Shown here: piece by piece, positions 1,395 through 62,015 of the stretch
Numbering within the stretch: the stretch's first letter is position 1
Layout of the letters: each line of letters begins with the position of its first letter
Assembly: GCA_032207245.1 (NCBI GenBank)
Contig: CM063504.1
Coordinates: 19,890,407-19,954,406, forward strand
DNA length: 64,000 bases
DNA from: Pardosa pseudoannulata
Taxonomy: Eukaryota > Arthropoda > Arachnida > Araneae > Lycosidae
Direction: 5' to 3'
Program-made: the position numbers and the translations under genes
Notes under the pieces: generated by a model
The model's input: only the letters and a program-made list of their open reading frames with translations
Told to the model about the DNA's origin: nothing
Databases searched by the model: none

Positions 1395-1464
1395 TTACAA
1401 TTTAGTTTCTTTCATTCCTTTGTTGCTGCTGACAGAATCATACAAGTGTTCAGATTCATCTTCC
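1395..1464 (-). CDS. Exon 12: terminal exon with stop codon
   Basis: 70 coding nt after acceptor TTCTCTTTCAG; phase 2 in. It encodes 22 residues and TAA (1395-1397). E-H-L-Y-D-S-V contains a YxxV motif of the type read by clathrin adaptors or, if phosphorylated, SH2 domains. The 3' UTR probably runs to the AATAAA cluster at about 1131-1147 (minus strand). Confidence 0.76.
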
Positions 1465-2492: not shown

Positions 2493-2591
<99 letters not shown>

Positions 2592-2598
2592 TATATAC

Positions 2599-2684
<86 letters not shown>

Positions 2685-5600
2685 ATAAACATTTATTTAA
2701 TTAAAATAAAATAGTTAAAATGATTTGAAAGGTAACACCTTAAGACTAATAATCAATATAGATGTAATATATAAATGTAATATATATTTAAGGATGTAAT
2801 AATATTTTAAAAAAAGCTATTAATCTGCTATATTTGGTTTAAAAAAACATGTTTTTAATTTGTGTACCAATAAAAAAAAGCTAACAAAAATGACACTATA
2901 GACTTAGTTTGGGTTTTCTGACAGGAATCTGCAGTTCTGGAACTAGTCAAACAGTTAATATAAAATTTGTCTACATAGAAGTAAATAAAATCTTGCCTGT
3001 GAGTCATTTATAACACTTTTATTCTCTTTCATTCAATGTATATCCTCACTCCACTCCTCTACAATGCAGATAGCTTCCCCCCCCCCCCCCCCCGATCAGA
3101 GATCAAAGGTAGTCTGCACTGTCTAGTTCATCCTTAGTATGCCTTTGCCTAGAAGTGAGGTAGCTAAGTCACAGTCAAGAATTGGAAGATGGTATGGTTG
3201 TATGCAAAGGAATTAATTTTGATGTATGCTTGATTAAAAATATATTATTAGAAACTAACCTAGACTAGAGAGGGTATGGGGTATTTTAAAACTAGTTTGG
3301 TTAGTTTGAAAATAGAAATTTTTAATTTTTGTAATTGAATGAAAAAAATTTGGTTACTGCCCATATTTCTCCAGTTGTCTGAGGTGCAAACCATTTACTA
3401 AAATTAAGAAATCATCTTCAAAAAGGAAGGTGTTTAGTATTTTCTGAGTTAAATTTTTTAAAGATATTTTATGTAATTATTAGCCACAGAGTTAGGCTCA
3501 GGCAAAATCCCTGGGGAGGATAACCAGAGTTTATATTTTGAAAACTGTTCTTCTGGTTGATAAATATTTCATACTCTAGTAGTAAGATTTAAAAAATTTT
3601 ACTGTTAAATAGGGACTAGATAAGTGGAGGAGTGTATCAGAATTTCCTAACCTACTCTATTGTTTGTTTGTTTTTTTATATCAAGTGATATGCCTGTAGT
3701 GAGATGTCCTTTTGTTAAATTATTGTTGGTTGTTTGGAGTAGCCAATTTATTTCTGTTTCAGGTGAATTGGCTGCTCTGAAGACATATTGATTGGGACTT
3801 AAAAAATGAAAGGTTATGAGATGTTAGGTGGAACATTAGTCATTTATTTTTTCTAGGAGTTAATCTAAAGATGGAATCAGTGTTCAAGGTCAAGGTAATT
3901 GGGTTAACGGAGTACCTAGCGAAGTGGAAAGTCTTCACTTTAACCTCCGAACGTGAAGTGATCAAAACATAAATTTAGGCCTCTAGGCAAAAAGTAATCC
4001 AAACAAGAATTTAAAACGCTCCAGCTCACAAGAGAGCGAGGAGGTGAGTACGTTCTCATAAAAAATTATGAGTAACCAACGCGTTGTCTAATTAAAGATG
4101 GAATCAGTGTTATTAGATAAATTTGCTTGTTTTGGATCTTTTTTTTTAAGTAAATTGTCTTATTTTAAAAGATTTGGGAAAATGTCCTAGTTTGCAGCAC
4201 AGAGAAGCCATTTCATGAAAAAAGGTCTTGTATTTGTTTTAATATATTGACATCTTTATTGTCGTGACCATGAGCGACTTTGAAAGAAAAGAAAATATTT
4301 TTGTATTCATTAAATGTTAATAGAACATATTTGGAATGCGGCATTCTAAAATTATCTAGTTTTAATAGAGGCTTAAGATTTTAGAATAAGTTATTTGTGA
4401 GCTTGATTTTGGAGTGGAAGGTAATGATTACAATAAATTAATTCAATGAATATACTAATTCCCAATCTACTAAGATTTATGTAGCCTAAATACTTTACCG
4501 AAGGAAATATTGAATGGAAAACCAAATTTATTTCTTGTGTTCTCGCAAAATTCATGTTATGCTGAGTTCCTTGTTATTGGAAGCTCTATTTTTGACTGCA
4601 ACCATATAACTGATATTGACGCTACCGGTCCCCGCACATGGTAGAACTTAAAAGCTCTACAACAAAAGAACAAAAATATATCGACGAATTCACCAGTAGT
4701 TGATACAACGCTTTTTAAGTCCATTAAAAAGATAAATATTGTATTATTTGCAAAAAATAATTTTGAATTTTTACTGTTTTATCAATTCCTCGTACTGAGT
4801 AAAAGATATATTTTAATCGTGAATTTAGGTTTATTACGAAACATTTATGAAACAAACAAACAAAAAAATAAATAAATAAATAAATCACTATAGCAGATAT
4901 TAACGCAAGTCTCTTCCAGATGCAAATGCAACATATGTTTTATTTAGCATGGTTTGAAATCTTGACGCTTTTTTACCGACAGGTAAGATATAAATTTATT
5001 TTTCAATTTTAGTGTCTCTTTAAAACCAAAGCATTTTTCGCAAACTATTTTTTGCCACCATACATTTTATTATTACTATTTTTGGGCTATTTTTATAATT
5101 TCGTGCATGATTTTGCTGCTATGTTTCATACATAGAATAGGGATATTAATGAGAAAAAAAAGGAGTACTTACTCTGATTTTGAAATACTACAATTTGTAC
5201 TGCTAGCATTCTCATTTATCGAAATTAAGGATTGTATATTAGGCCTCCTTTTACCTCTTCTGTTAGCAAGGACCTGGAGCAGTTTGTCAGATTCTTGGGA
5301 AGTTGAAGGAATAGCATTCATTTCCACTTCATTTACTAAAACAATAAGTTATAATGACAATATTTTCACCCATATCAGGAAAATTGAGTAACGAAAATGC
5401 AAAACGGGATTGAGTATGACCTGAAATAAGGAAAAATGTCACCAAATTTAGCTTCCTATCGATGATTTGGTTTGGACCACCGCGATATACTAGTTTGCTA
5501 CGCGAGAGCTAATGAGACCGGGGCGTATTGCTTAAAGCCAATTCAGAACGGCTTCGAACAATCAAGTCACCAATGCGATTCGAACCCGTGACCACCGAAG

Positions 5601-8600
5601 AGCAGTACCTTACCATTCGGCCATCTTCCTATCATTGAATTAAATGTAATGTAAAAGAGAAAGAATTAAAAAAAAATACATATTTGTATGGTGCTTGCCC
5701 CTCGCAGTGATGTTCAGTAAATTGTGTATATATAATAAGACGGACTACGACGGGCAATTAGTCATGACCAGAACAAGATACTGTTTTAGTAAAGGCCGTT
5801 ATTAGCAGAATGTTGGGTGGACGGGTTCTCACTTCATTATAGGGACGAGATAAACTGAGGTAGCTAAGTAAAAATGTGTGTAAAAATCTATCTCCGATAG
5901 CGTGCATCTTTTTTTAGGAATTTCCTAAATTGGCCGCTGGGGGACCATAAAGTTTTAATTCGTTAGACTCCTACCCTGAGGGCGTGAACTGTAGCCCCAG
6001 TAGTCAGTTTAGATTACGGGATAAAAAGGGGAAAGCAAAGAGACTGTTTTTTTTCTCCCCTCTTGACTTTAGTTTTAAAACCCCCTGAGAATTTTCTCGA
6101 GCTTTAATGAGGTCTTTCGGCTATAAATTTACGTCGTTTGTTTTTTTTCTTTATTTTTTATACATTTTATAACTGTTTTTTTTTACCCCTTTCTATTTTT
6201 AAACTTTTTCAAATAAGTCATTCCTTTTTTTTTTTTTTTTTTTTTTATTCTTTCTAAATTTTTATTTTCTTATTTTACTTTTTGAGTTTACAAATTTTTT
6301 TCTCTGTTTTTAGCTACTAAATTTTCATTTTCTTTTTTTTTTTTTTTAGGGTATTATACCTAAATAGCCCAAGCCTTCTTCGAGTATCCATATTTGAGTC
6401 TCCTTTAAACGTTGTCATCGAATACCTAAAACCACGAAACAAACTCCCTTTAGGAACGTTTGCATCGTATACATACAAAACTTTCTACGATACACTTTAT
6501 GTAAAATATTATGAATTTTAGAAAACTCGTTCTATTTAATAATGCTTTATAGTATACTTAAATAGAAAACACAAAGTTATTCTCTGTGATAATACCATAT
6601 TTAAATTAAATCTAAATATAGTCTTTAGTTATTATTACTATGAATAGAAAAAATAAAGTTCTTATTCGAATTTTTAATCTGACTTTTATACCAAAACATA
6701 TACTGTATTGAATTATATATATTTTTATATTTATATATAGTATCGTGTATAATTACTTGTAGAAATATATTTTTATACAGTTCTTTATTTATAATCGTCT
6801 TTCATCTGAAATGAATATATATATATTATGAAAATACCATATTTATATAATATTATATATATAATTATATAAAAAAGACAGTTAAGTTATAATTTAGTAT
6901 CTGTTTTACTATTAATCGTTTTCTAAAAAATCAAAATAATTTCAAAATATATATATATAGATATAATATATATATAAAAAAAACCAAATTGACATAATAA
7001 TAAAATCATAAGTTCATTAGAAGACGTTAGAAATATGAGAGAAGCAGATATAGGTGGTGATCAGTCTCAAATAGTGTCAATCTTTAAAATGAAAATTACA
7101 GAACAGGAGAAAAAACTAATATAAGAATACGATATGATACTGTAAAACTTAAAGAAAACAAGAGAAGAAAAAATTTTTATTCTCGTACTGAAGAATAGAT
7201 TTAAACATCTTCAAGATGAGGAAAAATTAGATAATGGAATTGATCTAAAGTTGAAAATCTATGGAAGGTTTTCAGGGATACGTACAAAGATGCCGCAAAC
7301 GAGACACTAGGAAGGAGGAAAGCAAAACCTAACAAAGAATGGATAACAGGAAGAGCACTGGCAAAGACTGATGAGAGAAGAAAAATATTTTAAACACTAA
7401 ATCAATGCGATTGCGAGACATCTACATAGGTCAATACTCAGATTTAAATAAACTATGAAGAAAAGTGCAAGGGAAGAGAAGAGGAAGTTTTATGAAGAAA
7501 TAGCCCAAGAGGCACAATCTGCAACTGAAAAAGGGGGAAGTTAGTAAATTGTACCAAAATGTCAGGTGTATTAAACGTGCAAATAGACCAACTTATACGA
7601 TATCGGACAAAAATAACAAAATCTTGACTAAAGAGAATGATGTTAAGAACCGTTTGAAAGAACATTTTGAACAAACTTTATTTGTTGATTATGATCTAGG
7701 TCAGGGCTGTCCAACTACGAAGAGCCCACGGGCCAGAATTCTGGTCACTGATCACCTGGCGGGCCGTAGTTTGAAAAAGTTGAACAATAACCTCTTAACT
7801 CTTATACAATAACATTTAATAGTTGTATTATTAATTATAAAACAATTTGCTGACATTTTAATGGGAAAACTGAGGCCAATCAGCCTTCTTTACCAGGGCA
7901 GGAATGTCAACAGCGAATTTTATCGTTGCTACCGAAGAAGGTCAACAATGAACTGTCGGAAAGAGAGCTCCTGTAACGATTCTTGATAAAGTTAATCGCC
8001 GAAAAAGCACTTTCGCATAAATATGTGCTCCCGAATATGGAAGTTATTTTCAGTCCTAAGTCACGCAGATTTGGAAACCGTTCAGTTGGAAGCAACGTGA
8101 AGAACTCGGGCCACCTTTCGGTTCTTGTTGGAAAAAAACGGGTCAGCCTGGAGATCACAGAGCTGTAATTGTAGGTTGGCCGGTTGCTCTTCAATTCTTG
8201 CTGTGACTGGGTTACTAAACAGAGCCTCGTCAATCTTGATGCTCTCAAAATCTGAAAATCTCTTGTTGAATTCATCAATAATAGTCTTCAACTTAGGGCA
8301 AAATTAAAAAAAATCCAGCACATCCTCACGACGAGCAGCTGGCGAAGTGAGATAAGTTATTTTTTTCCCAAAGTTTCATAGAAAATTTTCAGCTTGTTTC
8401 TAAACCCATTGATGTGTGCCATTAGATCAGACACCAGTTGACCTCTTCCTTGTAGTTTTAAGTTTACATCGTTGAGGTGGCCAGTAATATCAGTTAGAAA
8501 TGCCAGGTGACGTGAAATATCCATGCTTAAAAGTTCTTGTTCAAGGTTTTCTGATGGAGAAAACTGGTGAAGGAAAAAAGGTATTTCTTTTCTCAACTCG

Positions 8601-10403: not shown

Positions 10404-10463
<60 letters not shown>

Positions 10464-10724: not shown

Positions 10725-10772
<48 letters not shown>

Positions 10773-12008
10773 GTAAAACGCGTTTGTTTTATTTTGCAAC
10801 AAAAAATATTCTGATATTTTGAACAGGCCAATATTAAATATTTGTATATGTTGAGAGGCGATATTTTGTACAGGTTACATTTTGGATCACGGATATTTTA
10901 GAAAAGCGATATTTTGGACTAGCGGCATCAATTTGTACTACGATATTTTGATGGATACCACTTCTTTTATTTACGTAGAATTTACAAGCAAGAGTTTTAT
11001 CAAGAATTACCATTTTCTACTACTACTTGTTCCTCCTCTTCTGGTGAACCTGAGACTAATGTCTGACGTCTTCCATAACCATCTTCTAAGCATACTTTAG
11101 GTATCGTCGTTTCATATGTATTCTCCTCTACTGGAAGTGCATCGATTTCTAAATCGAAAGTCTTATTTTCTTTTTCTGGAGTACATCTATGGACATAAGA
11201 AGGTTCAATATGTAAATTATATGCTTTTAATAATAATAGAACCATTGGTTCAAGAATTAAAATATCTATTACACTTATTTGGTCAAATATTAGATTTTAA
11301 AATATTGTAAGTTTTTCGTAAAGCACTTGACATTACTAAATACTGTACACGTTTAAAAATATTTTTGCATACTAAAAGGTTTTTAAAAGAGTATTTTGAA
11401 TAGTGTTACTTAATTTTAAAAAATTAAAATTATTCTCTATAAATAGAAGTGTAATTCAATGTTAATGAGCACAATATGTAACTCATCTATTGTTTTTCAG
11501 AAAATGTGTGGGATTTGGTATCTTAAAAGTTTCAAACCATATCGCTAGTAAAATAATGGCATTATATTGCATTTCGATTTTGTAAAATGAATCTTTTAAA
11601 CAAATTTTAGTTTACGAAAGTAGCATAATTTTGTCTACAGAATATTATCAATGTAGGCGATATTTCTTTCATGGGTGCACTAGAACGAATTGAAAGCAAG
11701 GTTAAGTTCAACTTCAGGCTGTTTTTTAAAACCAAGGGGACAGTAAATGTAGAAAATATGTCGGGCACTTCGGTGGAGGACAGCCCTGTACTTGCGGTCT
11801 GCCAACCACCGTCGGGTCAAGCGTGGAGGGCTTCAAGGCCAAATGGGCCAGGACTTGTGCATGAATGTAAGAGTATTTTGAAAAAAAATTGTTTGTGTAA
11901 ACATAGGAAACATCGAGTACACATGCTCGTAGAATGCCGAACACTTTTATTTATACATAACATTGGGTAGCATTGGTAGGTAGCATTGCTACCCCTGCCA
12001 ACGGGTGA

Positions 12009-12046
<38 letters not shown>

Positions 12047-15000
12047 ATGATACTAGTAGAAAGGGTAGATGATTTCGTTCATCCTGATGTTATAGTTCAT
12101 TGTTTTCGACGTCATCAATCTAAAAATCTTCCTCCGTGTCCAAGAGATGATACAGTTTCACTAGGGAGGCGTGTACAGTAGTTTTATATTTTCCCCCACG
12201 TCTACGTCCTTGACCTGCATGTACTACGGAGATCACTTACCTGATAAATGTCAGGTAATAATACAGGACTCCCAGTAATTTTGCTTTTGAATTATTGTAT
12301 GGTTATATTCCTGAAATCCCGAATGATTTTCCAATAGACTTATTACCAGAGGAAGGTAAATATTCCGACCCGAAAATTCTCCAAGATGAAGCAAAACAAC
12401 ATATTTGTAAATCGCAAGTCAAAACAAAGAAATATGATCAACGTCATTGTTAGGGGTGTACGCAAGGAGGCATGGGGTTTAACCTCCTCCCTCCCCTTAA
12501 GCTCAGACAAAATGGCAAAAATAAAAATTTTAGTAGACATGCGGGCTATTATTTTTTAGAATTGGCACACTCCAAAGTTGAAGGTATACAGAACCTCGGT
12601 ATAACGATCCCCTGTGAGACCAACATCATATGGTCGTTGTAACGAATTGAAAAAATAATTTTAAAAAAATTGAGAAAAGAAATGATGCAACAGTACATAC
12701 CTAGAGAACACTTCTATTTATTTGTATTTCTATTACTGAATTTTTGAAAAAAAAAGCCTTTGATTGGCGCCTGTTTCAAGTTCATTAGGGAATTTTTCAT
12801 TATAACTGATTCCATATCCGTTAGATTTTGAAGAATATCTTCAGGATTAAATTGTCCTTCAAAATATTGACGCAAGGCATTGATTGCATTGAAGGCTTCT
12901 TTTTCATTCACTTTTTCAAAAGTTTGGACGATTTCTTCTCCGTCGTCGGAATAGCAGATTTCTTCATTTCCGGTAATACGGGTAATAAAATCGTCCTCAT
13001 TCAAATTTTCTTCGCAGCACTGTAAAGTTTCGCCTACCTCAACAAACTCATCAAAAGATAATTGAAGATCCGGAAATTTGAAACTGAGGAGCTGGGTCAT
13101 TTCGTTAGTGTCTGGAGTTCCATCTACCTAGGATATCTATGTCTTACGTAACGAAAGAGTCTTTTAAGCAAACACAAAGAGAGGAGTACAGGTTTCTTGA
13201 AGTTGCACCACAGTGCAATAATTTTAAAATAGTCCACTTGCTCATGAGTTCTGCGGTCTAAAATTGGCGGTCGCTCTAACGAAAAATAATACGCTTGGGG
13301 TCGTTGTAATGATTCAAAATTAACATTATTACTATGGTAAAGTAATTGGGACTTTTTAAGATGGTCGTTCTAACGAAGGGGTCGTTTAACGAAGGGGTTC
13401 TACTGTATTAGCATCAAAACACAGTAACATAACTGACAGTTCTTAAAACTTCGAATCGAAACGGACCGATAGTAAGAATATTCCAAGTTTGCATATAAAA
13501 TATTAGTTCACTTATCTTAAATCGTTATTTCTTGCTTTTTTTTCATTTTTTTTATTGCTATCGTTGCCAACGGTTGACCCCCCCCCAAAAAAAAAAAAAA
13601 AAAAAACGTACTAGTAGAAATGGTAGATGATTACATTTGTATTCTCTATACAGTGTTTGTTTTTGATGATTATGGAGTTTTAGTGATAAAACTAATCAAA
13701 ACGAAAATAAATATACCGGTGATAGGTTAACCAAAGTAAACCAATTTTGTTTTGAAAATTTAGCAAAACGGATTAACGTTTCTGGTTAATTAATTCCAAG
13801 AAATTTAAATTAATTTTAGGAAAATCTTAATAAGTAGGGTATTTTCTAACAAATGTATATATGCATATATATTAAATAATAATTTATCAGTTCTAAAAAG
13901 CAAATTAAAAGCAATTTTATTTTGTAAAAGAAAATTTGAACTTGGTTTACTCGTTGCGGACTACTGTGTTAAAGACCAAATTTTTCTTTTTTTAAGCAAG
14001 TGATAGTTTTTGTTTGCCTATTACTTACTTTTGGCTGAATATATTATTTTTCCAAGCCCATATCAGCAGTCCTAAAGATGCAAATGAGACATAAATGAGA
14101 ATAGTCCACATTCCTACAGATGACATATGGTTCTTCAGAGATTCACAGAGTTCTACCTAACAAAACATGAAGTAGGAGTATTGAAAAGTTAGCGAAATCA
14201 AAAATCTGTGATAAATTATTAAGACAAAGAAATTAAAATTAATACATAGAACAATTCAATATTTCGCTTTCCGTCTGTTTTCTGTGTTTTCCAATATTTC
14301 TGTACACAAACACACATAAATATGTACATGTAATCTTTGAAAAAATTATTTTAATAGGCATATTTACTATGTGCAGGAGATATTTAACAATTTTAAATGA
14401 AAGTTGTCATATTTATTAGGTAGATTGATATGAATTAGTCCATTTGTAGTAATATATTACCAAAGTATTGCAAATTGTACGTAAGGATAATGAATTGAAA
14501 AGGTAAAATAAAAGGTAATTTTGAAAATTTAAGTATTACAATTGTTATTTCGTAACGCTATTATACACTGTCTACAAATAAGTATTTAGACACCTGTGAT
14601 AGAAAAGGAAAACTAACTTTATTCAAAATCAATAGTTGGTAGAGCCTCCACGAGAGGCAATTACAGCGTGAACCCTCTGGGGCATACTTTCCACAAGTCT
14701 TTGTATTGCAGCTAGTGGTATTGTCTTCCATTCGGCTTGGAGTAGACAAACAAAGTTCCTTCCCCGATTTTGGACGGATAGTGCACCCCTTAATTCGGAT
14801 ATTCAACTCGTCCCAGAGGTTCTCGATAGGGGTCAGGTCTGGGCTCTGGGCAGGCTTGATGAACTCCATTGGCACCATACCAAGTCTTGTTTAACATCAA
14901 AACATGACAACTGGCATTGTTGTCCTGATAGAAACAGGGGTTTAAACGTAGGAAGCACATTGTCATCCAAAATAGTGCAGTAGGCATCAGCGTTGAGCTT

Positions 15001-17178
15001 ACCATGAATGGGGACCAAGTGTCCCAGTCCATACCAGGAGAACATCCCGAGACCATAATTCCACTTCCGCCGAACTTAACTGTAGGCACAATGCATTGTG
15101 GCAGGAGACGTTCTCCAGGCAGACGCCAGACCCAGACCCTGCCATCCGAACGGTAAAGGGTGAAGCTTGATTCGTCGCACCAAAGAACCCGTTTCCACTG
15201 ATCTACGGTCCAATTTCGATGTGCTTTGCACCACATTAACAGAGCACCGCCGTTGGACTTTGTGATCAAAGGCTTATGGGCAGCAGCACGATCATGGAAA
15301 CCAAGCAGATGTGCTTCCTTACGGATGGTATTCATTGAAACAATATTCCCGGATGCCTGTTGAAACTCCTCGCGGATGAGGGCCATCGGTTGGGTGCGGT
15401 TCTTCCGAATTTCTCTGGACAGCACTCGTCGGTCTCTATCTCCCAGTTTCGTTGGTCTGCCGACTCGGGGCACATTCCGACAATCACCGCTCACCTTCCA
15501 CTTCTTAATCACTTAGGCCACTGTCGATTTGGGGTACTTCAGATCTCTAGATATGTCCTTTAAGGATCGGCCACATTTGTTATACCCGATAATTATACCT
15601 TTTTCGAAATCAGAGAGCTCTGAACTGCGCGGCATCTTGAATGCGACTAATGCCGATGCTGTTTCCTACACGATGTATACCAGCTGAGGCTGTGACGTGC
15701 CTGAGGACCGCAGATATCGTCATTTGCATAGGTGTCCAAATACTTATTGGTAGACAGTGTAGTGTCTAATTAAAGCCCATATAACCTCTGCTTTTGACTT
15801 TTTAATAACCAACACTTTGGCTGTTTGTTTAAAAGACTAACAATCAAGACAGTTATGTTAAGTTTTTCGCTGCTTGAGATCACTACCTACTATTTTAAAA
15901 ACACAAACACACTATCGCGATGAGGAAAATAAAACTTAATGTAACAACTTGTTTGAATGATAATTAAGTCTCTCTTTCTCATTTTTCCCATTGTGGCATG
16001 GATGTTCGTAGACTTTCAGAATCTGCTTTAAGCAGAAAGTTCTGGTCTCATTAGCCCTCGAGTTGCAAAAAAGTAGACGATAGAGCTCCAAACCAAACCA
16101 AATCTCTCTCTCATTTATTCAAAGTTAGAATCAACCATTTTTGGATACTTGGCCGAATAATCTTTTTCCCCTTGATAGACGAAGAAAATAATTCAAGGGA
16201 TAATTGAAACGTTAACTGACCATCTTTTGATATGGTTTTCATAAGCTGTTTTATTAGGCATAATTTTATATCTAGAGATATAGAAATATAAAATTATATT
16301 TAGATGTTTCACAGCTATAAAAGGCTCTCTTCAGGCTTTAGAGTTTCTTGTAGGTTGCATGTGCCCTTTCCACTCAAGTTGTGACTGTGGTAGTTGCGAA
16401 AATGTCTGTAACTCGTGCTGGTTTCTGACGTAAGCTCTCTGTTAAAATACGGTATTGATTTTGCAAAAACTTATCTTAACACAATACTTAAAAACTGTAA
16501 AATAATGGTGAGTTTTAAAGCTACTTTTTTATTGTCTTTGATCAAGGGAAAAAAGCTTCACGCTAAAAACCACTATTGTATGAGAAACTGTTTCAAGACG
16601 TTATTTCATCATTGGCATGTGTAATTAATAACTTTTAAAATAGTATTCTACATCAAAATTTTACCATTTATATATAAATATATTACTAATGACTTAGTAA
16701 ATTTTCAAGCAGAATGATTTTAAGCAAAAATTTGATTTGAAAGTGTAATTTTGTCTTAAATTTTAATGCGAAATAGAATACAGTTCTCCATACCAGCTTT
16801 ATAATGCAAAATATAGGATGAGTGAGAAAAATTAAGACTCACTTTGTATCCTAATGTCTTATTGAGATCTTCTTGTGTAAAAATAGTCATCAAATTTTGC
16901 AGCTCTTGATATTTGAATAATTTTTCGTCGCACCGAAGTAAGGCAAGCATAGATAAAGCACCTGAGGTTGTAAATTCTCTGCGATATCCAAAAAGTTTAA
17001 CAGAGGTTTTGCTATAAAAGGAAAAAAAAAAGTATCAGTGAAAAAATAGGATAGAAGTTTTTTTAAATGTCGAATCAAATTAAATAGTGAGCTTTATTTA
17101 AAGATGGGAGGTTTGTTATATATATATATATACACACACACATATATATATATACATATACATATACATATATATGTG

Positions 17179-17218
<40 letters not shown>

Positions 17219-17260
17219 TATATATATGTGTGTATATATATGTGTATATATGTGTATATA

Positions 17261-23153: not shown

Positions 23154-26100
23154 GTATGTATATATATATTTATATATACATATTATACACTTTATACATA
23201 TTATATTTTTGATATTTTAAATATATAACAGATGATAGTTATACTTTAACTTATTTATTTCCTTTTCTATTGAAATATATGTATTTAAACTTTCTGTACT
23301 TGAGAAGTCAGACTCAATGTATCTTACTTATGACCTCAAATAAAAGTATCTGTACAAACAACACTTTTAAGTTGTTAAGCTATTTATTTATTATGCCAGT
23401 TTAAGGATTATCATTTATTGTTCTTTCAGTATAGTTAAACTTTTAAAAAGGCAATGTTCAAGCTGTACAATGGTAGAGGTTAGTCAGTTAAACCACTTCT
23501 CAAACCCTAATTTGGTATCCTCTAAGGCAAACCCTTCTAAGGAATGTAAAGAAAATTTATATATTTTACATATACAAGGCTTATAGATAACATTTTTAAA
23601 AAATTACATTAAATTCCCATGAATTTATTTTGGTGACCTTTAAAGGGTTAACCGTTTACAGGCCAAATTCAGATACAGATATCTTTTAAATTATTTGTTT
23701 GCGTATATTTCCTTCTAATGCTTTAATTAAGGTATGTTAGTCATTTAATTGAGGAAAAAATTTTTCTTTTACGATTTTCATGATGTTCCCAATTGGGAAC
23801 ATTGGTCACTTCTGACTATACGCTGGATTAAGAAATTGAGTTGAATGATGTATATATTAAATATTAAATAATAAGAAAAATAATTAGAATGAATTTAAAA
23901 TTTATTTTTAAATTCAGATATCAATAAAGTTTAAAAATTTTCTTAAACAAATATCAAAAACATGAGTTTATACCTTTATGCCATGATATATTGGAAAGTA
24001 ATGGAGATGCAATTTTTTCTTGCTCTCATTGCAAGCTAATCTTGCATTTAATGTGCACTGTGCACATCTACCTTGTGTTGTTTGTACAAGAAAATTCCCA
24101 TCACTTTTTCTCTGTGATATAGGGCAGTGAAATTTGGGTCCAGGTTGAAGCCTAACTTTCCTGGGCGCAATTCTTAGAAGAGCGGTTGTAACTTGTAGTA
24201 CGCGGACTAAATACATTTAACACCTTTCAAAATAAAATTTGAGAAGCGAACTGTTTATTGAATTGAAATGCCCTTTCATAAAATTAGGGAATTCACCTTC
24301 ATTTCCTACCAAAGGGGAATCCCCTTTCAAGAAATGCTTTCCGTAGAGGAAATTATTTCGTCGCAGTATAGCGGCAACAGTCCATTTTTCCCATTTGGGA
24401 ACATCAATAACTTATAAATTATTCCAGGTACGTTTCTGATTATTAATGTCGAATTTCGTATTTTTTTAATAAATTACAGTTGTTTTAATTATACTAATCG
24501 GATTTTAGAAGCATTAGATGTTTTTTTTACATTTATGGGAAATTTTAATTTGTGCTCTGTAGAAAATGATGAGAAAGGTCATTTTTATGACTTTTTATGC
24601 ATTTTTCTATTAATCATAGAATTGTAGCTTCCATTTTAAAAAATCGAATAGGCTTTTTACTACATTTGCTAATTTTTTTGTATCAATATTGATGAAATTT
24701 AATTTTAAATAATTTTATTGATATTATGTTCCCTATTGGGAACAATGGACTGTAAAAGGTTAACCACAAATCCAAGCAAAAAAATTCAAAGATTATTAAA
24801 TCGAAAGTCCAAGACTTTTGAAATTCCCAAATTTGACTATAATATGGCGTATCTTTAAAATATTAATACTTTTAAAATATAAAAGTCTTCCAAACATAAT
24901 AGAAAATTGAAATATTCCTTGAAATATTCTAGAAACTAGAATTTTCAACTTGAAAATTCTCTGTAGGCTATAAAAGTATTTTTTAATACGTGATTTTCCC
25001 AAACGTATTATATTATTGTTGCCACCGGAGAAATTTAAGATTTTATTAAGGGTTGGATGAAAAAACTTATTAACTTTGAGAAATTTGGAAGCAAGATCCA
25101 AGAAAGCAAGTATCTGAAATTATAAAGAATGTCCTGTGGTAGTAAGAGCGTAATAAAAACTCTTAATATTTGGAAGCAAAGTTTTATCATATTTTATATT
25201 TTGTTTAAGATTTTCTATTAAGAAAATAATGAGATTAGCATAGGGTAATTCTCTTTTTTTTTACAACTTAACTCACTTTAAAGTAAGGAATTCATTAAAA
25301 TACAATACTTACGTGCAATGAAACTTTTGTTGTTTTGTGTTGCTATTAACGCTCTCGGCAAAGGCCTCCCGAAATGTTGGAAATACCTCATTCATGTTGT
25401 AATTTTTTTCTATAATCTACAAATACATAAGCTTCAATAAGTATAGAATAACGAAACAACTGGGAAAAGGAAAGAATAAGTTGATTACTTTAAGAATTCT
25501 TGTATTCTTTTTTTGTTTGTTTGTTTTTGGTATTTTTGACAAGCAGCAATTAAAAGTCCATGTTTTGCAATTTTTATGACAATTTTAATATAATTTTATA
25601 TTTACTACAGTTCTTTAATGATATGAAAGAAACGAGATATAGTAAAAGTTTTAGTGAAATATTGAAGTAGATGGGTTGTTTATTATTATATTGTGATTCA
25701 GACATAAACGGTGTGGGCTCTTTGTAATACATCAGGGATCGGCAAATTACTGCCCGAAGTCTGCTTTCATAGTGGCCAAAACAAGTATATTATTATTTAC
25801 TCTTGTGCTCTCTCTTTTAAAGCATTCACCACGACCAAGCAGCAGAAATTTGTAGACCACTTTACTATGGGATCACCATATAGTCGGCCAAAATTACGTT
25901 GGAGTTCATATCTGTATTTGGGGATACTTATACACTGTCTACTAATAAGTATTTGGACACCTATGCAAATGACTTCTGATCTGCGATCCTGAGGTATTAT
26001 TAATATCTGCGGTCCTGAGGTACGTCACGGCCTCCGCCGGTATACATCTTGTAGGAAACAGCATTGGCATTAGTCGAATGCAAGATGTCGCTCAGTCAAG

Positions 26101-31400: not shown

Positions 31401-34400
31401 GTTGGCATATTGTTAGAAACAACCAATAGCAAACTGTTAGCCTTCAGATGGCAAAAGTACCATACGTGGGTTGGTCCATCATGAAGTTGCTAGCCTGGAT
31501 GTCTATTCAGTAATGACATCCATAAAAACTACATTCCTTTTCATTACCTTATAGTTAAACTTTATTAATTTCCTTCCATATATTATTCAATACAAGGAAT
31601 CGAATAAAAACTTACCACAAAGAGTTTTCTATTAAATGGTGACGTATAAATACACTTTAAAATTTTTATCTGTTATAAAACCATACTTTACTATAAACAA
31701 AAATGTATAAAAATTTAAAATAAATTAAACTTTATATCATAATGCTGAATATAAAATTTTAATTTGAATTTAAAAGATTAAATTCTTTTAAAAAAAAGGT
31801 TAATTTTCTTACAGAAAGTATGAGAAAAGCATAATATAAATTACATTCAATGAATGAAATATTATCCTATAAATATTCATACACAATTTCCTGCCTCAGT
31901 TTTTACGTGTGTACCTAATTACTAAACACATTTTAAGAAAAACAAAACTATAATTTCTTGTTTGTTTTTCCTTTTCTTAATTAACAGGAAGTTTAACTTT
32001 CGACCTTTGCTTCATATCGTTTTTTCGCAAAATCCGCAGAAATCTACTTTTTAAATTAAAGTTGAAAATCAATGTTTAAAAAATACAGAACGTACCAAAC
32101 TGCTAGAATAAATGCTGAATTTTATTTAATTACAGAAAAGGCATTTATAAAAGAAACACGAATCGACTTCTTGGGTAGAGGTGGGTGGGTAATTCAATTT
32201 GGGCTTAGTTCTTTTCTCTTTTTTAAATACCCCGGCCCCAAATTATCTTTGAGGTCACAATGACTACTTGAACATCGATGTTGTTAAAAGTATAGCTTTG
32301 TGCTTATGAATACTATATCTTTTATCCGTTATCTGTAAAGTAAACTTTTTCAGGATCTTCAGAAAAAGGCGAAAAAATATTAACGGCAGATTGATAGGGT
32401 AGACGCTAACAATGTACGTTAGTGTGTTAGCTGATGAAGAAGCATTTTGTATGCTTGTGTGGTTGCGTCTGAAGGACAATGACCATAAGATAAAACAAAT
32501 ACCTCTTTATTTGCTTCTGTGTAGTTGTGAAAGCAAATTAGAATTGCATTCAATGTATCCTCAGGCTTTATCGGAACTGGTATTTCAGCATCTGGGGAAA
32601 GTAAAAGATAGTCCTTAATTTATGCGCAGCTTTTGAAAATAATGTAAATTTCATAAATGTTTCTTACGCTATTTCGAATTTTTTTACATTTTTAAACCCT
32701 TGTCACATATCAACATGTTCCTGTTAAAAAAGCAGCAGATTCAATTTAGGATTTATTCTCCCACTGAAGAAAACAGAAATTTCTTGTGTGATAGCGAAAC
32801 ATTTTCAACCGATTAGAGGCAAATTTACCTGAGCTGAAAAAATTCGGTTGAAAATGTTTTGTTGTAAAAAAAGAAATCTTCCCAATCATCATCAATAAAA
32901 GGAATCATTAACTACAGGTTGATGTTTGATAAATCCTTTGGAGAATAACAAATTTTCATTTATTTAAAAACTATTCCACACGTTTAACAATGCCAACGTT
33001 TTTTATGTTAAAATTTAGAATTTAATACACACAGAAAGGCATTTAAATTCAAACTTAAAAAACAGAGCTAAAGAAAGAAATTGAAAATGTCTAAAAAGTT
33101 TATACAGAATCCTCAACGTTCTTTGTAACCTGTATAATACCAAATGTTTCATTTATTAATAAATTATTTTATACAATTTAACAATGTAAAAGTTTCTTAT
33201 ATGAAACATTTAGAACTAAAAATAAATATAAAGAAAGAAATTAAAATTAAAAAAAAATTGAAAATGTCTAAATAAGTTTAATTTTAATCCTAACCAGTCT
33301 TTGCTACTTGCATAATAAATATTTAATTTATTTAAAAATTATTGTAAATTAATTAAATAATGTAATGTTAATTTATTTAAAAATTATTGTAAAGTTCTTA
33401 TGCCAAGAACTTAGAATTAAATAGATACGAAAAGTTATTTAAAATAAAGTGTAAAAACAAATCTAAAGAAATAAATTGAAAGAAAAAGAATTACAAATGT
33501 CTAAATATATTTATAGAGAATTCCCAGCATACCTTAACGCTTGCACTCCTGGTTACAAACACACACTCACAAAAGAAAAAAAAAATCTGATCTAAATACT
33601 ACATGAATTGATTGTACGCCTATTAAATTATACTCCTATTTTGCTGCATCTCATTTAAACTTTTATTTAAAAGTGAGATACGATTCTCCATTTTTTTTAA
33701 TAAAGTGAACAGTTGCACAATTGCTAAAATATTACATTTTAATAACATAAAAAAGTATAGAATATTAAACCAATTATGAGTAGAATTTCATTCAACAATG
33801 AGCAGTATATATTAATTCAACAACGAATAGAAATTAAGTACTGCCATCTGGTGACAGATGATAGAATTTAAATTATTTGTTATATTGAGATTTTAATTAA
33901 ATAGAGTGCAGATTGCTCAGTAAAATAATGAATGTGCACACCTAGATGCTTCAAAAGTCCTAAATACAAAAATTTAATCATTTCATACAAAATTTAATTC
34001 ATATAATTTTTTAAATAAGGAAGATATGTACGTACGTAAGTACAGTTTCCTGGTCAAAATGTATAGTTAAAATTTCTTTGTACATGTGTGCAGATGTAAC
34101 GCTTAAAGTAGTCCAAGTGATCTCAGGTATGGTCATAAGGACGTATTAATAAGGCAAGTTTAGAATGAGGGGTCTGGACAATCCCCAAAATATTTTCAAT
34201 GTATGCATCATTACAAGATATTTTGAAACTTATCAAAATTTGTATTGAAGAGTTTTCGGCTTTAATTGACCTAGAAAAAGGATAGCGGAAGCTTACGTAA
34301 GACTAAAGATCTTTATTAGAAACACAATGTTGAAGTTATGATGAAGACAGATGAACACGTTGAATATCTACAAAAGAAAATGATGATCGTTACAGGAATA

Positions 34401-44300: not shown

Positions 44301-47300
44301 TCCTAACTCATGAAAAATCCAATATGGATGCCTATGTCCATTCCAGGTATAACCGCTTCATAAATTCGCTTGACAGACAATTTAGGCTATTATTATATAG
44401 GGGATTCCAATACGTCGTTTGAAGTAGAGTTTTTATTTATAGGATGACCCCTTATAAAAATCATGCTACGCCCTACTGAGAGATCTTTCGATATGTATTT
44501 ATAAAAAAAAAAGATAGTATCGATCGCAGGTTATTACAGCCCCGGATAGAATATTCACAACATCTTCTCTTTTGCTTTGGAATATTTCCTGATATCGTCA
44601 TACTCATTGTGAGAACTTTTTTTAATGTGTGTGAAACACAATTTGTCTGAGGAACTTCAAAGCCATTGTATATATGTTTAATTTATAGAGAGTAGAAAGA
44701 ATTGTAGTTTGCGTTATGTCTCTCTTGAAGGTGGCGGCCTAACATACGCTGTGTCCTTAGTCCATTAAACTTTTGTTTTTAAAAATGCTGAACCACCGTC
44801 ATTTGATTTAGATAGCCATTTTTCTACATGGTGTATCGGCCGGGAATAGGTTGAACTTTGGAAAACTTCTGTGTTTGCAAGGAAACAATGGACTAAGTTA
44901 GTGTGGAGTCAACTGAATAGTGTTTCGATTTGGGTTAAGAATGGAAAGTTCAAATTATCAAGGTATAATGGAATTTCAAATTAAGGTAGGGAAATCTTAA
45001 ATTAATTAGTGATTTCAGTAGTAAATTAAATATTTATTATTGCTGTCTTGGGTGTATTTAAAATTAACTAAAATGGAAAATAGATTGAAACGTAAATTCT
45101 CTACATTGAGATCGTCTATTACAAAGTTGATTAAAGCTATTGAAGATAAATTAAAATGTAAAGTTGAGGAAAATTTGATAAAAGAATTACGGGAATCGTA
45201 TGACTTATTAAACGGGAAGAAAAATAATCTGAGAACGCTTGATGAAGAAGTTCAAGAGTTAATTGATGTTAACTTAATTGAAGATTATTGCTTAAGTGAA
45301 GAATATAATGATAAATGAATAATTGCTTCCGAGGCCAGAGGGCGCTGATGTCCGCACCGAGGTAGAAAGAATTGTAGTTTGTGTTATGTCTGTCTTGAAG
45401 ATCGGAGGACTAACAATACGCTGTGCTGAACCACCGTCATTTGATCTAGATAGCCATTTTTCTACAGAGGGAATAGCCTGAAATTCGAATGCCTTTGAGA
45501 TATAATGTTTGAAGGCTCAAATATGATGCTTAAAATCTTACTTACTTATACGTTTCCAAATGATTTTGAAAGCGTCAGACGTATTGTGAAATGACCTGCA
45601 AACGAATTCTATATATGCACTAGCATTTCCTATAAAGAACAATGAAGATTCTGTAATTGAAGACATAAATCGAGGAGGGTAATCACCTGGTGAACCTGAA
45701 AAATAAAGATTATTTTCTTAACTTTTATTGACAACAAATAAATACTCTCATGTCCATAAATTAAGGATAATGAAGTTCAGGCAATGAAAGAGACAAAAGC
45801 AAAACAAATTTGACTTATTTGTAAAGTCAATTTATTAAACAAAAGGTAAAGAGCAAAAAAGATACTATATGTTTGACATTTTTAATAAAAATTGCGATTT
45901 TTACTCCCTGGAGCAAATTTCAAAAAAAGAACCTATTTACAGAAAACAGTATAACATAGTTAGTATGATGGTTAATACGGAGTATGTCTCCCGGACGATG
46001 CAATACAAGCGTTACAACGCCTACGCATGTTGAGTATCAGATTATCAATCTGATCTTGGGGAAAATTACACCACTCATCAAGCAATGTCCTCCGAAGTTC
46101 CGATAGACAGTTGGGAGGGGGTTGACGGGCTGCAATTCGTCGGCCAAGCATGTCCCACACATGCTCTATTGGATTCAAGTCCGGTGAGTATGCTGGCCAA
46201 TCCATACGGGTGATATCCTCCGATTGAAGGCATTCGTCTACAATGTTTCCACAGTGAGGTCGGGCGTTGTCATCCATATACAGAAATTCAGGACCCATGG
46301 CGCCCCGAAACAAACGTACATGTTGTTCCAGAATGACATCCCGATAGATGTGGCCTGTCATCGTTACACTCTGAACATGCAGGTCAGTTCTGGAACCAAG
46401 AATAATTCCTCCCCAAACGAGCCATCCTGCACCACCGTAACGGTGTCGTTCAATGGTGTTCTCTTGGTTGTAACGGATACCTGGCGCTCTCCATATGAAA
46501 GCGGCGAGAATCAGAATGTAAACTGAACCTGGACTCATCGGAAAACATCACACAAGACCACTGTTGCGGTGTCCACAATGCATGCTCTCTAGCCCAGCAT
46601 AATCGCAGGCGACAGTGAGTGGCGGTAAGGGGAACACATCTGACAGGCCTACGAGCATATAGACCAATGTTCCCTAAGCGTCTGTACACGGTCTGCCTTG
46701 AAACTGTCGTACCGGTAGCTGAAAAGAGCTGACGAGACAGGTCTGATGCTGTGCTCCGTCTGTTTCTTTTGGCAGTAACTGCCAAATACCGGTCATCATT
46801 CGGCGTAGTAACTCGGGGGCGACCTGTGCTGTAACATCTACTCACATTACCATCATGTTTGAATCGTTGCCAAAGCCTGGAGATGACACTCTGGGCGATT
46901 CCAAGTTCCTCGGATACTTCCAGCTGGGTACGTCCACATTCCAGTCGTCCGATAATTCTACCACATAAAAAATCATCCAAATGCTACCTTTGTGCCATAA
47001 CTATGCGGTTATTGCACTGAAAGGCTTTTAAAGCGCTTGTGAACAATTATTTTTCTTTGCTACCATTCCTTATATACCCCTTTCATACACTCTCGTCATT
47101 GTGACGTACTATCCGTGCCATCTGGTGGTTTCCTGCAATTTGCATATTCTTCTTCAAGATGTGTGTGATAATTCTACAGGTGGAATTTTTATTTTAGAGC
47201 TCAATTTCTGTGTGATTCTGAATTATCCTTAATTTATGGACATGAGTGTACTTTTACTCCGATAGGAATAAGCCTAATATCTTCTTCTGTCAAAAGGAAT

Positions 47301-53300: not shown

Positions 53301-56300
53301 GAGTGCTAAGTTAAGCTAATATATCCTGAGAATGGCGCGATTCCGTTCCATTCTGTGACAAAATATAGCGTCGTTCCTTCGGCAACCTTTGTGGTATACG
53401 TGCGTGTGGATTTACCCTTTTTAGTTCGGAGATATTTTAATAAAATGGAGTTTTAAAGGACTTTTGGCTGCATCTGTGTTTTGTGCATGACTCTAATGAC
53501 TGCTTAAGGTATCCGTCTACGTTGAAAACGTCATTTTTTGGGCAAAAATCATAATTTTTTTAAAATTTCTCTATTGTAAAATTTCAACTTTTAGGCTTCT
53601 AAATCTGTTTTTGTTTTGTCTCTACGGCATTTTAAAGAAAAGTTACAGCTGTTTAAACATCAGTGACAGCGGTCAAAACAAAACGGAAATAGCGACTTCG
53701 GAACCAGAAGTTGTGAATTTAAAGCCTTTTAAAGAGCAGTTTTTGGACAAAACTTTTTAAATTTTCATGAAGATTATTTTAAACATTTTTCTAGTATTTT
53801 TAATAATTAGCAACTTGGCAATTAGAAAGTTTTGAAGCAAGAAGGTGTGGGGAATTTTAAACATGTATTTTAATTTTTTAATAGTTAAAGTTGCTTTCAT
53901 AAACTTCAAATGTCTTTTTTCTCAGAACGATATTTTTAATAAAATGTTGAAACTTGAAATGGGATTTCTCTAAAAGTTCTTAAAATATTTTGTTGAAAAT
54001 TATTATGAATGCTTTTGATAGTATTTACTAGTGAATGATCTAAAAGCTTTAAATTTGGATAATTTCTAATGATTTTGCAATCATAGTTAGATATAAAGGT
54101 AATGAAAATTCGTTAAAAATTCAATTTGTATGATTTTGAAAGACCAACATTTATTACCAAATGTAAATTAATTAAAGATTTTAGGTGATTCACTAGTCCA
54201 GTGTATAAGAAATCTGTTGCATCAAAAAAACATTGAAATAATTTAATTTATTAAAAAATTAGACTTTTTGAAAAAACCCGATATTTTTACTAAATTGTCT
54301 TCATTTATTAGAAATTTTATAAAAAACTTCTCCAGAAATAAATTTTTAAGTGCAATTCTCTATGATAATATAAAAATTAAATCTAAAAATGTAAAAACAT
54401 GAACTAGTTTCTATGTTTAAAGAAAAAAGTTCTCCTAACATAGACGGATATCAGTGAATAAATGTCCGAGTTAAGCCCTAGCTAATGAAATAAGGGGTAG
54501 TTTTCACTTCCAAATTACGAACTTAAATTTTACGCACGTCATACATGTAAAGCTATTTACGTATAAATTTTTCACACACACATATGTGTTATGCCATAAA
54601 ATCAACCACGGACACTGCCGCGGCCAACTACATCGAAGATCTACCGAAGTTATTAACCTTAAATTGTTGCAATCTTAAAAAATTTAACGCCTTCCCATTG
54701 GGCTACTTTTTGGAAACTTTTCATATAAATTACAGTATTTTAATCATGTAAAGCTATTTTATTAACATATGCGCTTTAATCTTTTGTGGGTCAATTAATT
54801 TTCTTCTGAAGTTCTTCCGGGTTTTTTTAGTTTTAATTATGAATAAAACAATAGGGAAATAACATGGAAAAATCAATTTAATGGCAATTACAATGGAAAG
54901 CAGATTGTAATGGCTCAAAGGCTCGGAACAAGTATTTCCGAAACTGCATGATTCGTGGGTTTTACGCGATCTACAGTTTTTAATACTTATGCAAAGTGGA
55001 TGAATGACGGTGAAACCAGCAGTAGACGACATGGTGATGGACGTCCACACACTGTCAAAGAAAAAGGTCGTGAGAAACTGTGTCTCATGGTGAAGCAAAT
55101 CCGCAGCCAGACAGTAGCTCAGCTGACAACCCAATACAATGCAGGGCCAAGTAGTCAGTGGTGTCAGTATTATGCTTTGGGAGACGTTCTCTTGGGCGTC
55201 TCTGGGACCCGTGGTTGTGGTAGAGCAGGCCATGAATGCTACAGGGTATCTGAACATCATTGCGGACCAGTTGCACCCTTACATGGCCTCTGTTTTTCCA
55301 GCTGGAAATGGAATGTTCCAACAGGACAACGCCCCTTGTCACAAGGCTAAAATTGATTTGGAGTGGTTCCAGGAACATGATGCTGAATTCCAGTTAATGT
55401 CTGGCCGCCTAACTCACCGGATATTAATCCGATAGAACACATTTGGAATGTCATGGGACGGCAGTTCAGAGTTCAAAGACCACCAATTCGGAATATCTCG
55501 GATTTGCGTAACCGTTGCTTAAACATCTGGTACAACCTGTCTCCGGTCATCTACCAAGGACTTGTGGCATCCATGCCAAGGGGGGTTGAAGCTGTGTTGC
55601 CCGCCAAAGGTGAGCCAACTCGTTATTGACAGGTGGTCATAATGGTTTGGCTCTTGAGTGTAGTTTGTATGGGTAAAATTACAGTATGAAGCGAATGGAA
55701 AAAGAATGTAAGTGGTTGCTGTTCAAAGAAAGAAAGCATACCGGATGTTTGCTTTTCATAAATATTAACAAATATTTCATAAAAATTCGTTAAAATGCCT
55801 AATAAATGGTGTTATACTAATCATAGACGTTGAATATTTACTTTAACATACATACCTGCTCCAATCAGGATATATTCGCCTTTTTCTGTGTCAATTCTGA
55901 GATCTTGGATTTTTATTTCGATCCCTTTCCAGTTTTTGGTGGGATGTTTCGGCAGTTTATACAAGCTAACACTATTGGGTACATAGTTCCCTAAAATTTC
56001 TCCCGATTCACTGGAGGGATTTTCCACTTCCGGCTTTTCTTTAGCTATACAACAATCAAAATTATACATATTAATAATTACTATAATATATACTAATTGA
56101 AATAGCTGACATATACTAATTGTATGTATTTCTCCAAAATTATTTGATTTTTTATTTAACAGTATTATGTTAAACAATAGACTTTTATTGTCTCTGAATT
56201 TTATCAGTAAATTCTTCATGATTCGATAATTAAATCTACGAGCAACTGCCTATTTCTCAGTTATATGGTATACTGGGTGAGTCTAAATTGTTTTTACTAA

Positions 56301-59300
56301 ATACATGGTTGAAAGTACCCATCCAGACAAGCAATAATTATCATGGGACACAGAGTCACATTCCATTCAGTTAGGAAGAAGAGAATGAAATTAGAATTCT
56401 AACCTGAACTTACAACAATGTTGAGAAAGCTAATAACTAATACCAAAATGTGTGCACTCTGATTAATTGTTCAGAGAAAAACTCATAACAACTATTCAAA
56501 GCAGTAGACATGATTGTTATTGCACAATTCACACCCGAAAATGAAATACTTGTGCCTGTTCTCGGAGATTTCTACGTCTCCGGCAACTATAATTCTCGAT
56601 ACGAGATCTCCAGCTGAGTTCATAGACGTCTCGTACACTAAAGATTTCATTTTCCACCAGAAGTTAAACCACAGGTCCACTACGTTTCATTTATAGTGAA
56701 GAGTATGTGGCAATAAAGAAATGTCGGACCGAGCTGGGACTCCATCGTGTATATCTTATACCTTATGTTTATCAGCTTGCAACTAACTCGGAAGCACTTG
56801 TTCAAAGAAGAAACTGTATGTTGCTCTGGTTAAACGATGTGCCAAAATATAAGGGCCTACCATGTAATCTCCGAGAGTACCTGCCCAGATGTTTACTGAA
56901 AATGTCTGCTACTGTTTGCCAGAAGTAGAACTGTGGGAATTGATGTCACACGAAACATGCTGATTCCAAAGTAAAAATTTTGATTGAAAATGAATTTTCT
57001 GCCAAATGTTGCTTCCTCACTAATTACTCGTTTCGACTTGACTATTTTCTGTCTTTTAGAACAGAATGTAAACCTTTCTTCCTTGGCAATTATTACTCAT
57101 CTGGATTTGGTACTACTTTCTCTCTTATTTTGTAAAATCAATTTCGACTCATCCTGTATACTTTAAAATATGGTTTTAAACAAAAGAAAATGTTTTCTTG
57201 CTATGAAGTTGTTCTTCATATTCTTATATATTTATTCTTTTATTCAATAATACAAAAACACTAAGTAGGGTTACAGAATTATATTAGTATACTTGATAAT
57301 GATTTTCATTATTTATTGCAAGGAAGAAGACAAACTTATTTTAAATGTCATCAAGTACTTGTCGAAAAGCAATGATGCAGTTTCATTGATGAATCATTCT
57401 CTAACAAGATAAAGTGGCAAAGAAAAAAAACAAATGTGCGCGTGTGTCTGTCGTTACAGAAGATATACCTATTAAATATTCAATAATTATACTTTTGAAA
57501 AACTTAATTTAATTTCTTGTTAACCTTGTGTGCTTCACTATCGAGTCTGACTCGACACTCTCTTTCTTTTGTAGCAAGTACAATCAAGTACGTCAAGTAG
57601 GACGCGATACGGTTTTTAAATTTAAGAACTAATGTTCACACTTGTATTGCTACGTAAACAATAAAGTAATATATTATTGTATTGTTTACGTAGCAATATA
57701 AGTGTGAACATTATTTTTTACGTAGAAATACAAGTATGAAAATTAATTCCTAAATTTTAAAACCGTATTGCATCATACTTGACGTACTTGATTGTACTTG
57801 CGTCAAAAGAAAGAGGGTGTCGACATATAGGAGTCAGACTCAATAGAAGCGCAAAAGGTTAAGATTAATTTGGAACAGACTGTTGAGAAGTAGGAAATTT
57901 AATTTGGAACGATAAGGGTTCAAGTATGGTTACAAATTGCGGATTTGTTAAGGCGTAACTACTCCAAAAAGTTCTCTCTTATATTTTTGTCAGTGAAGTG
58001 CACTGGTCTACAAAGAAGCTAGCACACTTGATGAGTTTGTCCGATTTTACGACAAACTGGTGTGCATATATGCTAAATAATCTTCGAGAAGGCCCCAAAA
58101 CGTATAAAACCGTTCCGACTTTCAGCCGGAGTCAGTACGATTAGAACTGCTTGATGGAGCAAGCAGATATTTCTACGATCGATAACTAAAAGGTTATTGT
58201 TTATATAGATTAATCTAGAGGCTGATATTTAATGGGATATTGGCTGGATATTTTTTTAACATACACCAGTTCCATTTCCATAAATATGAGTATTTATGAA
58301 TAGTGAAATCATTCCTGTTAAGGTGTAGTTAAAGTTTAGAATATTTAATTTGAATGCATTATTTTCCAAGGCTATATTACTTACTGTAAGTCCATTCTTT
58401 GAAAGAAAATTTCACCTCGTAAGATGACCAGTTTGATACAAGAGAAATACAAATACGAGCTTTGGATGTTCTAGTCAGATAATTTTCAATTCGTGGATTC
58501 GATTCATTTATAAGTAATTTTCTCGTTTCTAGCCTGCTGTATTGCTTCGTTTCAGTATTGAATTCATAAATATCTAACTGCAGTGCTTCTACTGATGATG
58601 TGCTTTCTGTGTTAAACTCGATGACTTGCTGGTAATGGGTTGATATATTCACTTCAATGACACTGGTTTTGTTCGGAAAGTTGAAATAGATACAGGTTTC
58701 CTGAAATTAAATTTCCGATTAAAAACTCCGATTAGGTTAAAATAATTTTAATTTAATTTACGGTTGAGTTAAAATAAAGTAGATTTTATGTAAAACACAG
58801 CTTTGTAAAACCTCATTAGACTACGCTCTTAAAAATTAAGACAAAATAGGTGAATAAGTATATAAGTATTCTTTCACTTTGAACCCTTGAACAATATTAA
58901 CGAGCACTATACTTTACACAATCGTGAAAACGTTTTTAGAAGGTAGAGTTCACAAAAACTACGAAGAATTACAATTTTTGGAGGTTAGCTTTGGTTTAGA
59001 GCGCTATGATCAACTGTTTTGGTATAGGTGGACATAGACTTAGACTTAGATGACCCACACCCACATCCAACTGAAGAAGTTTATGGATGCAAAAGCCTAA
59101 GTGGGTGGGGAGAACCTTTCGACATTATTCATTTTAATGTTATACACTGAATTATTAACTTAAAACACTTTTTTTTTATCACTATTACTATCTATGTATA
59201 GCAGGTGGTAACTATTAAGGTGATTTGTGAAGGAATGGCTTGATTCAAGAACTCCACGGGAGGCTTATGACAATGGACGCGAACTGACAAGTTATTGGAC

Positions 59301-62015: not shown

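What the first reader, a model, noticed from the sequence alone, without database searches (positions are those of the whole stretch)
1395..62015. A 12-exon receptor-like gene hidden under transposons across the whole window
No single long ORF exists, but 12 short minus-strand exons with good splice sites join in one frame (1640 nt, 545 residues plus stop). Phase agrees at 11 of 11 junctions, and the two least obvious exons were found because the neighbours required their phases. The product has a Cys-rich EGF-like segment, a CUB-like module, eight sequons all outside, one membrane helix and an acidic tail. I do not recognise it as a named family.
Basis: partly seen in the sequence, partly recalled or inferred. 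Interest (0 to 1): 0.88.

Follow-up and report, generated by a model that had tools for sequence, protein, structure and literature searches.

The report
Transposon-stretched gene, likely membrane receptor
Eleven short stretches spread over 61 kb of a 2.4-billion-base genome join without a stop codon and likely form the last part of one gene, predicted to make a cell-surface protein anchored by a single membrane helix, for which no relative was found in the collections searched; long introns full of transposons are ordinary in genomes of this size.

Summary
I rebuilt 11 minus-strand exons (61939-62015 to 1395-1464; 1631 nt, 542 residues plus stop), not 12 (1640 nt, 545 residues). A chain search given none of these coordinates recovers most of them, though the set varies with its weights. 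Its score beats all 1000 shuffles but only modestly beats plus-strand and reversed controls, and on splice sites alone it does not stand out. Codon structure is better evidence: G excess at codon position 1 is 0.115, against means of 0.009-0.035 in four nulls. In the 2.4-Gb genome each exon matches once, and no processed copy of exons 2-10 was found. The 5' end lies outside the window. No family is recognised; profiles for CUB, p24-type GOLD and SEA fit no better than many shuffles. The 105-residue exon 2 folds in silico, from a single sequence, as a beta-sandwich nearest to GOLD and jelly-roll domains. Likely reading: the 3' part of a single-copy gene for a type I membrane glycoprotein, function inferred. 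Transposon-filled introns are ordinary.

The parts
61939..62015 (-). exon 1 of the chain (5' incomplete): CCTECNCNVTESGECSLQYRGDCSE, Cys-rich; an acceptor at 62003 scores better and keeps the same frame
   Evidence: donor rank 21 of 3154, acceptor rank 617 of 3307; one genome match
58385..58700 (-). exon 2, 105 residues, predicted 8-strand beta-sandwich, GOLD/jelly-roll-like fold
   Evidence: one genome match
55856..56044 (-). exon 3, first half of the by-eye CUB-like region
   Evidence: donor rank 8 of 3154
45546..45695 (-). exon 4, second half of the by-eye CUB-like region
   Evidence: acceptor rank 5 of 3307
32503..32591 (-). exon 5
   Evidence: acceptor rank 8 of 3307 but weaker donor, rank 193 of 3154; not in the chain at weight 1.0
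25313..25416 (-). exon 6
   Evidence: donor rank 14 of 3154; low coding score, 1.2 bits; not in the chain at weight 1.0
16843..17011 (-). exon 7, before the membrane helix
   Evidence: acceptor rank 17, donor rank 26
14029..14156 (-). exon 8, carries the single predicted transmembrane helix (MWTILIYVSFASLGLLIWAWKN)
11011..11186 (-). exon 9, start of the acidic predicted cytoplasmic tail
   Evidence: coding score 24.1 bits in frame against 0.1 and 1.3 in the others
5173..5335 (-). exon 10, tail, with the motif ESDKLL ([DE]xxxL[LI])
   Evidence: acceptor rank 513 of 3307; not in the chain at weight 0.25
1395..1464 (-). exon 11, last exon: tail end with YDSV, then TAA at 1395-1397
   Evidence: acceptor rank 3 of 3307

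Best explanation
The minus strand likely carries the 3' part of one multi-exon gene whose eleven exons, from 61939-62015 down to 1395-1464, join without a stop into 542 codons and a final TAA and are predicted to encode a type I single-pass membrane glycoprotein. Shown: the open joined frame, the splice-site sequences, the codon-position signature, and one match per exon in the genome. Predicted: a Cys-rich piece, a beta-sandwich domain like GOLD and jelly-roll folds, a second beta region (by eye), a membrane-proximal region, one helix and an acidic tail of 141 residues. Inferred: it sits at the cell surface with the glycosylated part outside, binds a ligand or partner through the beta domains, and is taken up by endocytosis through tail motifs (YDSV and ESDKLL). 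Transposon insertions and other repeats would have stretched the introns to 2-13 kb without touching the exons. The remaining 5' exons would lie outside the window.
For: A chain search on the masked strand, at weight 0.5, recovers 8 of the 10 exons it could find exactly (the last has no donor) and the other 2 with another acceptor, along with 6 extra exons. Its score is above all 1000 shuffles, and above the plus strand and both reversed controls, whenever coding score is counted. The chosen frame scores best of three in 9 of 11 exons; exon 6 ties and exon 1 has a better alternative. Codon-position-1 G excess 0.115 against null means of 0.009-0.035; in the minus chain chosen on splice sites alone it is still 0.076, against 0.001, 0.048 and 0.022 in the three controls. 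The minus strand has 45 candidate exons of 120 nt or more, against 20, 25 and 7 in the controls. None of the 1631 exon bases lies in internal repeats, which cover 21.7% of the window. Each exon has one genome match, and no processed copy of exons 2-10 was found. Sequons outside are 9 against 4.8 expected, sd 1.9.
Against: On splice sites alone the chain is not special: 27.0 against 25.0-30.2 in controls, and 34 of 1000 shuffles reach it. A plain candidate list is about as long on the plus strand (91) as on the minus (101). The recovered set changes with the weights: at weight 1.0 the chain drops exons 5 and 6, at 0.25 it drops exon 10. Coding bits per codon are matched by 12 of 5000 plus-strand resamples, and resampling does not allow for my having picked the exons. 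I chose the masked stretches; several have no Pfam support. No homologue in three protein searches, three contig scans, Pfam, NCBIfam or PDB, though these collections may hold few animal proteins. The exon-2 model rests on one sequence, and a control open frame from an intron got a higher pLDDT (80.0 against 69.6) with lower pTM (0.41 against 0.60). Both tail motifs occur together in 2222 of 20000 shuffles. The chance that 11 exons all miss the repeats is about 7% by my arithmetic (0.783 to the 11th power), and I avoided transposons when choosing them. No transcript was available.
Confidence: 0.7

Rival explanations
1. A mostly real gene, but with a wrong model: one or more of the weaker exons (25313-25416, 32503-32591, 5173-5335) are false, or an exon is missing, so part of the joined protein is not made.
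For: Exon 6 has a coding score of 1.2 bits and exon 5 a weaker donor; the chain search drops exons 5 and 6 or exon 10 at some weights and adds others such as 31616-31669 or 45358-45461; 38 other 12-exon chains of 1640 nt were found in a limited search.
Against: All borders fit in phase with no leftover, and 9 of 10 donors rank within the best 132 of 3154.
Confidence: 0.35
2. A chance chain: short open stretches between AG and GT sites in AT-rich DNA that happen to fit in phase, with no gene.
For: Chains of 12 to 17 phase-consistent exons arise on the plus strand and on reversed sequence; splice-only scores do not set the chain apart.
Against: The codon-position-1 G excess is above every resample of four nulls and above all nine control chains; 0 of 1000 shuffles reach the chain score with coding counted. 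In 400 shuffles the best chains were shorter (mean 239 codons), and none with 500 or more codons had an excess of 0.10.
Confidence: 0.13
3. The C-terminal part of an attractin/MEGF8-type protein: EGF-like module, then a beta domain (GBD), then a membrane helix.
For: Same order of a Cys-rich piece followed by a beta-sandwich; by-eye likeness of the exon-2 end to attractin (recalled).
Against: Exons 1-2 have no match to GBD_ATRN, while my recalled attractin stretch scores 4.9e-39; BLASTP aligns only 6 residues; a second beta region and about 135 more residues stand before the helix; the juxtamembrane motif of that family (recalled) is absent.
Confidence: 0.04
4. A decaying or unexpressed gene (pseudogene) whose exons still happen to be open.
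For: No transcript evidence here.
Against: No stop or frameshift in 542 codons over 11 exons, and splice borders present; recent decay cannot be excluded.
Confidence: 0.05

Closest known systems
p24/TMED proteins and other GOLD-domain proteins (SEC14-like)
CUB-domain receptors (neuropilin, cubilin, NETO)
   Same: By eye, the strand pattern of residues 132-243 (spanning the exon 3-4 junction).
   Different: No Pfam CUB match; 0.9 bits to a CUB profile, 186 of 3000 shuffles as good; only one Cys in the region.
Attractin/MEGF8
   Same: EGF-like piece, then a beta domain, then a single helix near the C-terminus (recalled architecture).
   Different: No GBD_ATRN match for exons 1-2.
SID1 transmembrane family (SIDT1/2) outer domains
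   Different: 2-7% identity, and one helix here against many in SIDT (recalled).

Membership tests
Type I single-pass membrane glycoprotein | one transmembrane helix | tested here: met
   Kyte-Doolittle: the 12 best windows all start at residues 374-385
Type I single-pass membrane glycoprotein | N-terminal signal peptide | tested here: inconclusive
   first exons lie outside the window; a scan of the fetched upstream stretch gave one candidate, and part of that stretch reads N
Type I single-pass membrane glycoprotein | N-glycosylation sites on the outer side | tested here: met
   9 sequons in 379 outer residues, 4.8 expected; 3 also in the tail, 2.1 expected; use of the sites not tested
CUB domain (PF00431) | sequence profile match | tested here: inconclusive
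   no Pfam CUB match; 0.9 bits, 186 of 3000 shuffles as good
EGF-like domain | six-Cys module matched by a profile | tested here: inconclusive
   7 Cys in the first 28 residues, no Pfam EGF match; the module would begin upstream of the window
GOLD domain (p24/EMP24) | beta-sandwich fold | tested here: inconclusive
   model pLDDT 69.6, pTM 0.60 from one sequence; GOLD among the best matches but tied with other jelly rolls
GOLD domain (p24/EMP24) | sequence profile match | tested here: inconclusive
   no Pfam EMP24 match; 0.4 bits, 530 of 3000 shuffles as good, profile of 4 sequences
Attractin/MEGF8 | GBD_ATRN profile (PF24972) before the helix | tested here: not met
   no match for exons 1-2 at E<=10 while a recalled attractin stretch scores 4.9e-39; HMMER filters may drop distant relatives
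SEA domain | sequence profile match before the helix | tested here: inconclusive
   -0.4 bits, 1310 of 3000 shuffles as good, profile of 5 sequences

The most novel reading that the evidence does not exclude
An undescribed family of single-pass receptors, combining an EGF-like piece, a GOLD-like beta-sandwich, a second CUB-like beta module and a membrane-proximal module above an endocytic tail, kept as a single-copy gene spread over more than 60 kb of transposons.
Probability: 0.25. Interest if true: 0.45.

Novelty: new member of a known kind. Interest (0 to 1): 0.25.

Why it matters
If the model is right, a membrane-protein gene with no match in Pfam sits in a single-copy locus that annotation could miss among transposons, and its exons give exact primers for a test by RNA. 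It would add one unassigned single-pass receptor to the animal repertoire. Large introns full of transposons are ordinary, so the locus structure itself is no surprise.

Tried and rejected
Homology: protein collection searched with a 374-residue chain (1523 candidates), the 542-residue chain (7994 scored) and exon 2 alone (3 candidates): none at E<=10. IMG/VR scanned twice and GTDB contigs once: no relative. PDB by sequence: chance-level matches, best E 0.83. Pfam and NCBIfam: only matches below the curated cut-offs, such as CycT2-like_C at 12.8-15.6 bits against 27. Profiles for CUB, p24 GOLD and SEA built from 8, 4 and 5 PDB stretches: no better than many shuffles. Attractin: no match. SIDT only by fold. 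A weak genome match on another contig (C14, E 1.74) is noise. No processed copy of exons 2-10. A search of the own genome for Pfam CUB did not complete. 5' exons: 100 kb upstream was fetched; no convincing exon was found in the readable part. Neighbour identities by PDB and Pfam were not confirmed. Rfam: 0 matches. Papers: four searches, listings and starts of abstracts only; none concerned this gene.

Full report
What was claimed. I rebuilt the chain from the sequence.

Rebuilding. Ranking open stretches between AG and GT sites gave a chain of 11 exons: 61939-62015, 58385-58700, 55856-56044, 45546-45695, 32503-32591, 25313-25416, 16843-17011, 14029-14156, 11011-11186, 5173-5335, 1395-1464. 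It joins into 1631 nt, i.e. two leading bases, 542 codons and TAA at 1395-1397.

Is it more than chance? Phase agreement is not evidence by itself: the same chain search builds 12 to 17 phase-consistent exons on the plus strand and on reversed sequence. A plain candidate list is about as long on the plus strand (91) as on the minus (101). After masking eleven stretches that I took for transposon-derived (not all with Pfam support), the best minus chain scores 56.2, against mean 20.8, sd 7.7 and maximum 46.0 in 1000 dinucleotide shuffles; but the plus strand gives 44.2 and the two reversed controls 46.6 and 48.2, so shuffles flatter the result. With splice sites alone the minus strand is unremarkable (27.0 against 25.0-30.2; 34 of 1000 shuffles as high). 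At weight 0.5 the chain holds 8 of my exons exactly, 2 with another acceptor and 6 that I do not use; at weight 1.0 it drops exons 5 and 6, and at 0.25 it drops exon 10. Coding signal separates the chain better. It has G at 0.264, 0.148 and 0.149 of codon positions 1, 2 and 3. The position-1 excess of 0.115 was reached in 0 of 5000 resamples from each of four null pools (nearest 0.112, plus strand), although 12 of 5000 plus-strand resamples reach its coding bits per codon. In the minus chain picked on splice sites only the excess is 0.076, against 0.001, 0.048 and 0.022 in the controls. The chosen frame scores best in 9 of 11 exons.

Surroundings. Tc1/mariner-type transposases lie at 14793-15512, 41634-42164, 45975-46547 and 46453-46983, and a hAT end at 7913-8287. 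Internal repeats (40 nt or more, E<=1e-6) cover 13913 of 64000 bases; no exon base is among them. Introns are 2.3 to 13 kb. The window is C8:19890407-19954406 of a genome of 2,415,360,735 bases. In it each exon matches once, and the only other match is noise; the spliced DNA of exons 2-10 finds no processed copy. Downstream, on the other strand, and about 100 kb upstream, on the same strand, stand exon-like stretches that remind me of fukutin and of a family-31 glucosidase end (recalled; not confirmed). If that is right, the missing 5' exons lie within those 100 kb, part of which reads N.

How it likely works (inferred). One helix after 379 residues with 9 sequons and before a 141-residue acidic tail suggests a type I surface protein. 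The tail has YDSV and ESDKLL, which resemble endocytic sorting signals (motifs recalled); both occur together in 2222 of 20000 shuffles. I therefore propose a ligand-binding receptor or adhesion protein that is internalised, with low confidence in the last step.

Verdict. A real gene is likely (0.7 for the reading as stated; lowered from 0.72 on checking, because the chain search depends on its weights and one null pool comes close), its model is good but not exact, its family is unknown, and nothing in the locus structure is surprising.

Noticed in passing
14563-15761 (-) and 25931-27181 (+): Two copies of one Tc1/mariner-type element in opposite orientation, 88% identical over 1253 aligned positions; the minus copy matches HTH_Tnp_Tc3_2.
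   Followed up: partly
23648-24763 and 49267-50417: A 1.1-kb element repeated at 86% identity; I did not look for a transposase in it.
   Followed up: no
57520-57862: Foldback element: 116-nt arms, 88% complementary, 40 nt apart, between exons 2 and 3.
   Followed up: no
7910-9264 (-): hAT-like transposase remains; 7913-8287 matches Dimer_Tnp_hAT, E 1.8e-4.
   Followed up: partly
1-360 and 1640-2000: Two repeats with copies on many contigs of the genome (50 matches listed, all but the window itself 73-79% identical), on either side of the last exon.
   Followed up: no
L031:2-985 and L031:2217-2480: Downstream of the window: an integrase (rve) open frame, and an exon-like stretch that reminds me of the fukutin C-terminus (recalled, no match).
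   Followed up: partly
L018:9718-9885: About 100 kb upstream, same strand: an exon-like stretch with a very strong donor (7.7 bits), followed by what looks like a short last exon, which reminds me of a family-31 glucosidase end (recalled, not confirmed).
   Followed up: partly
34546-34734: A 94-bp unit repeated twice, 89% matches.
   Followed up: no
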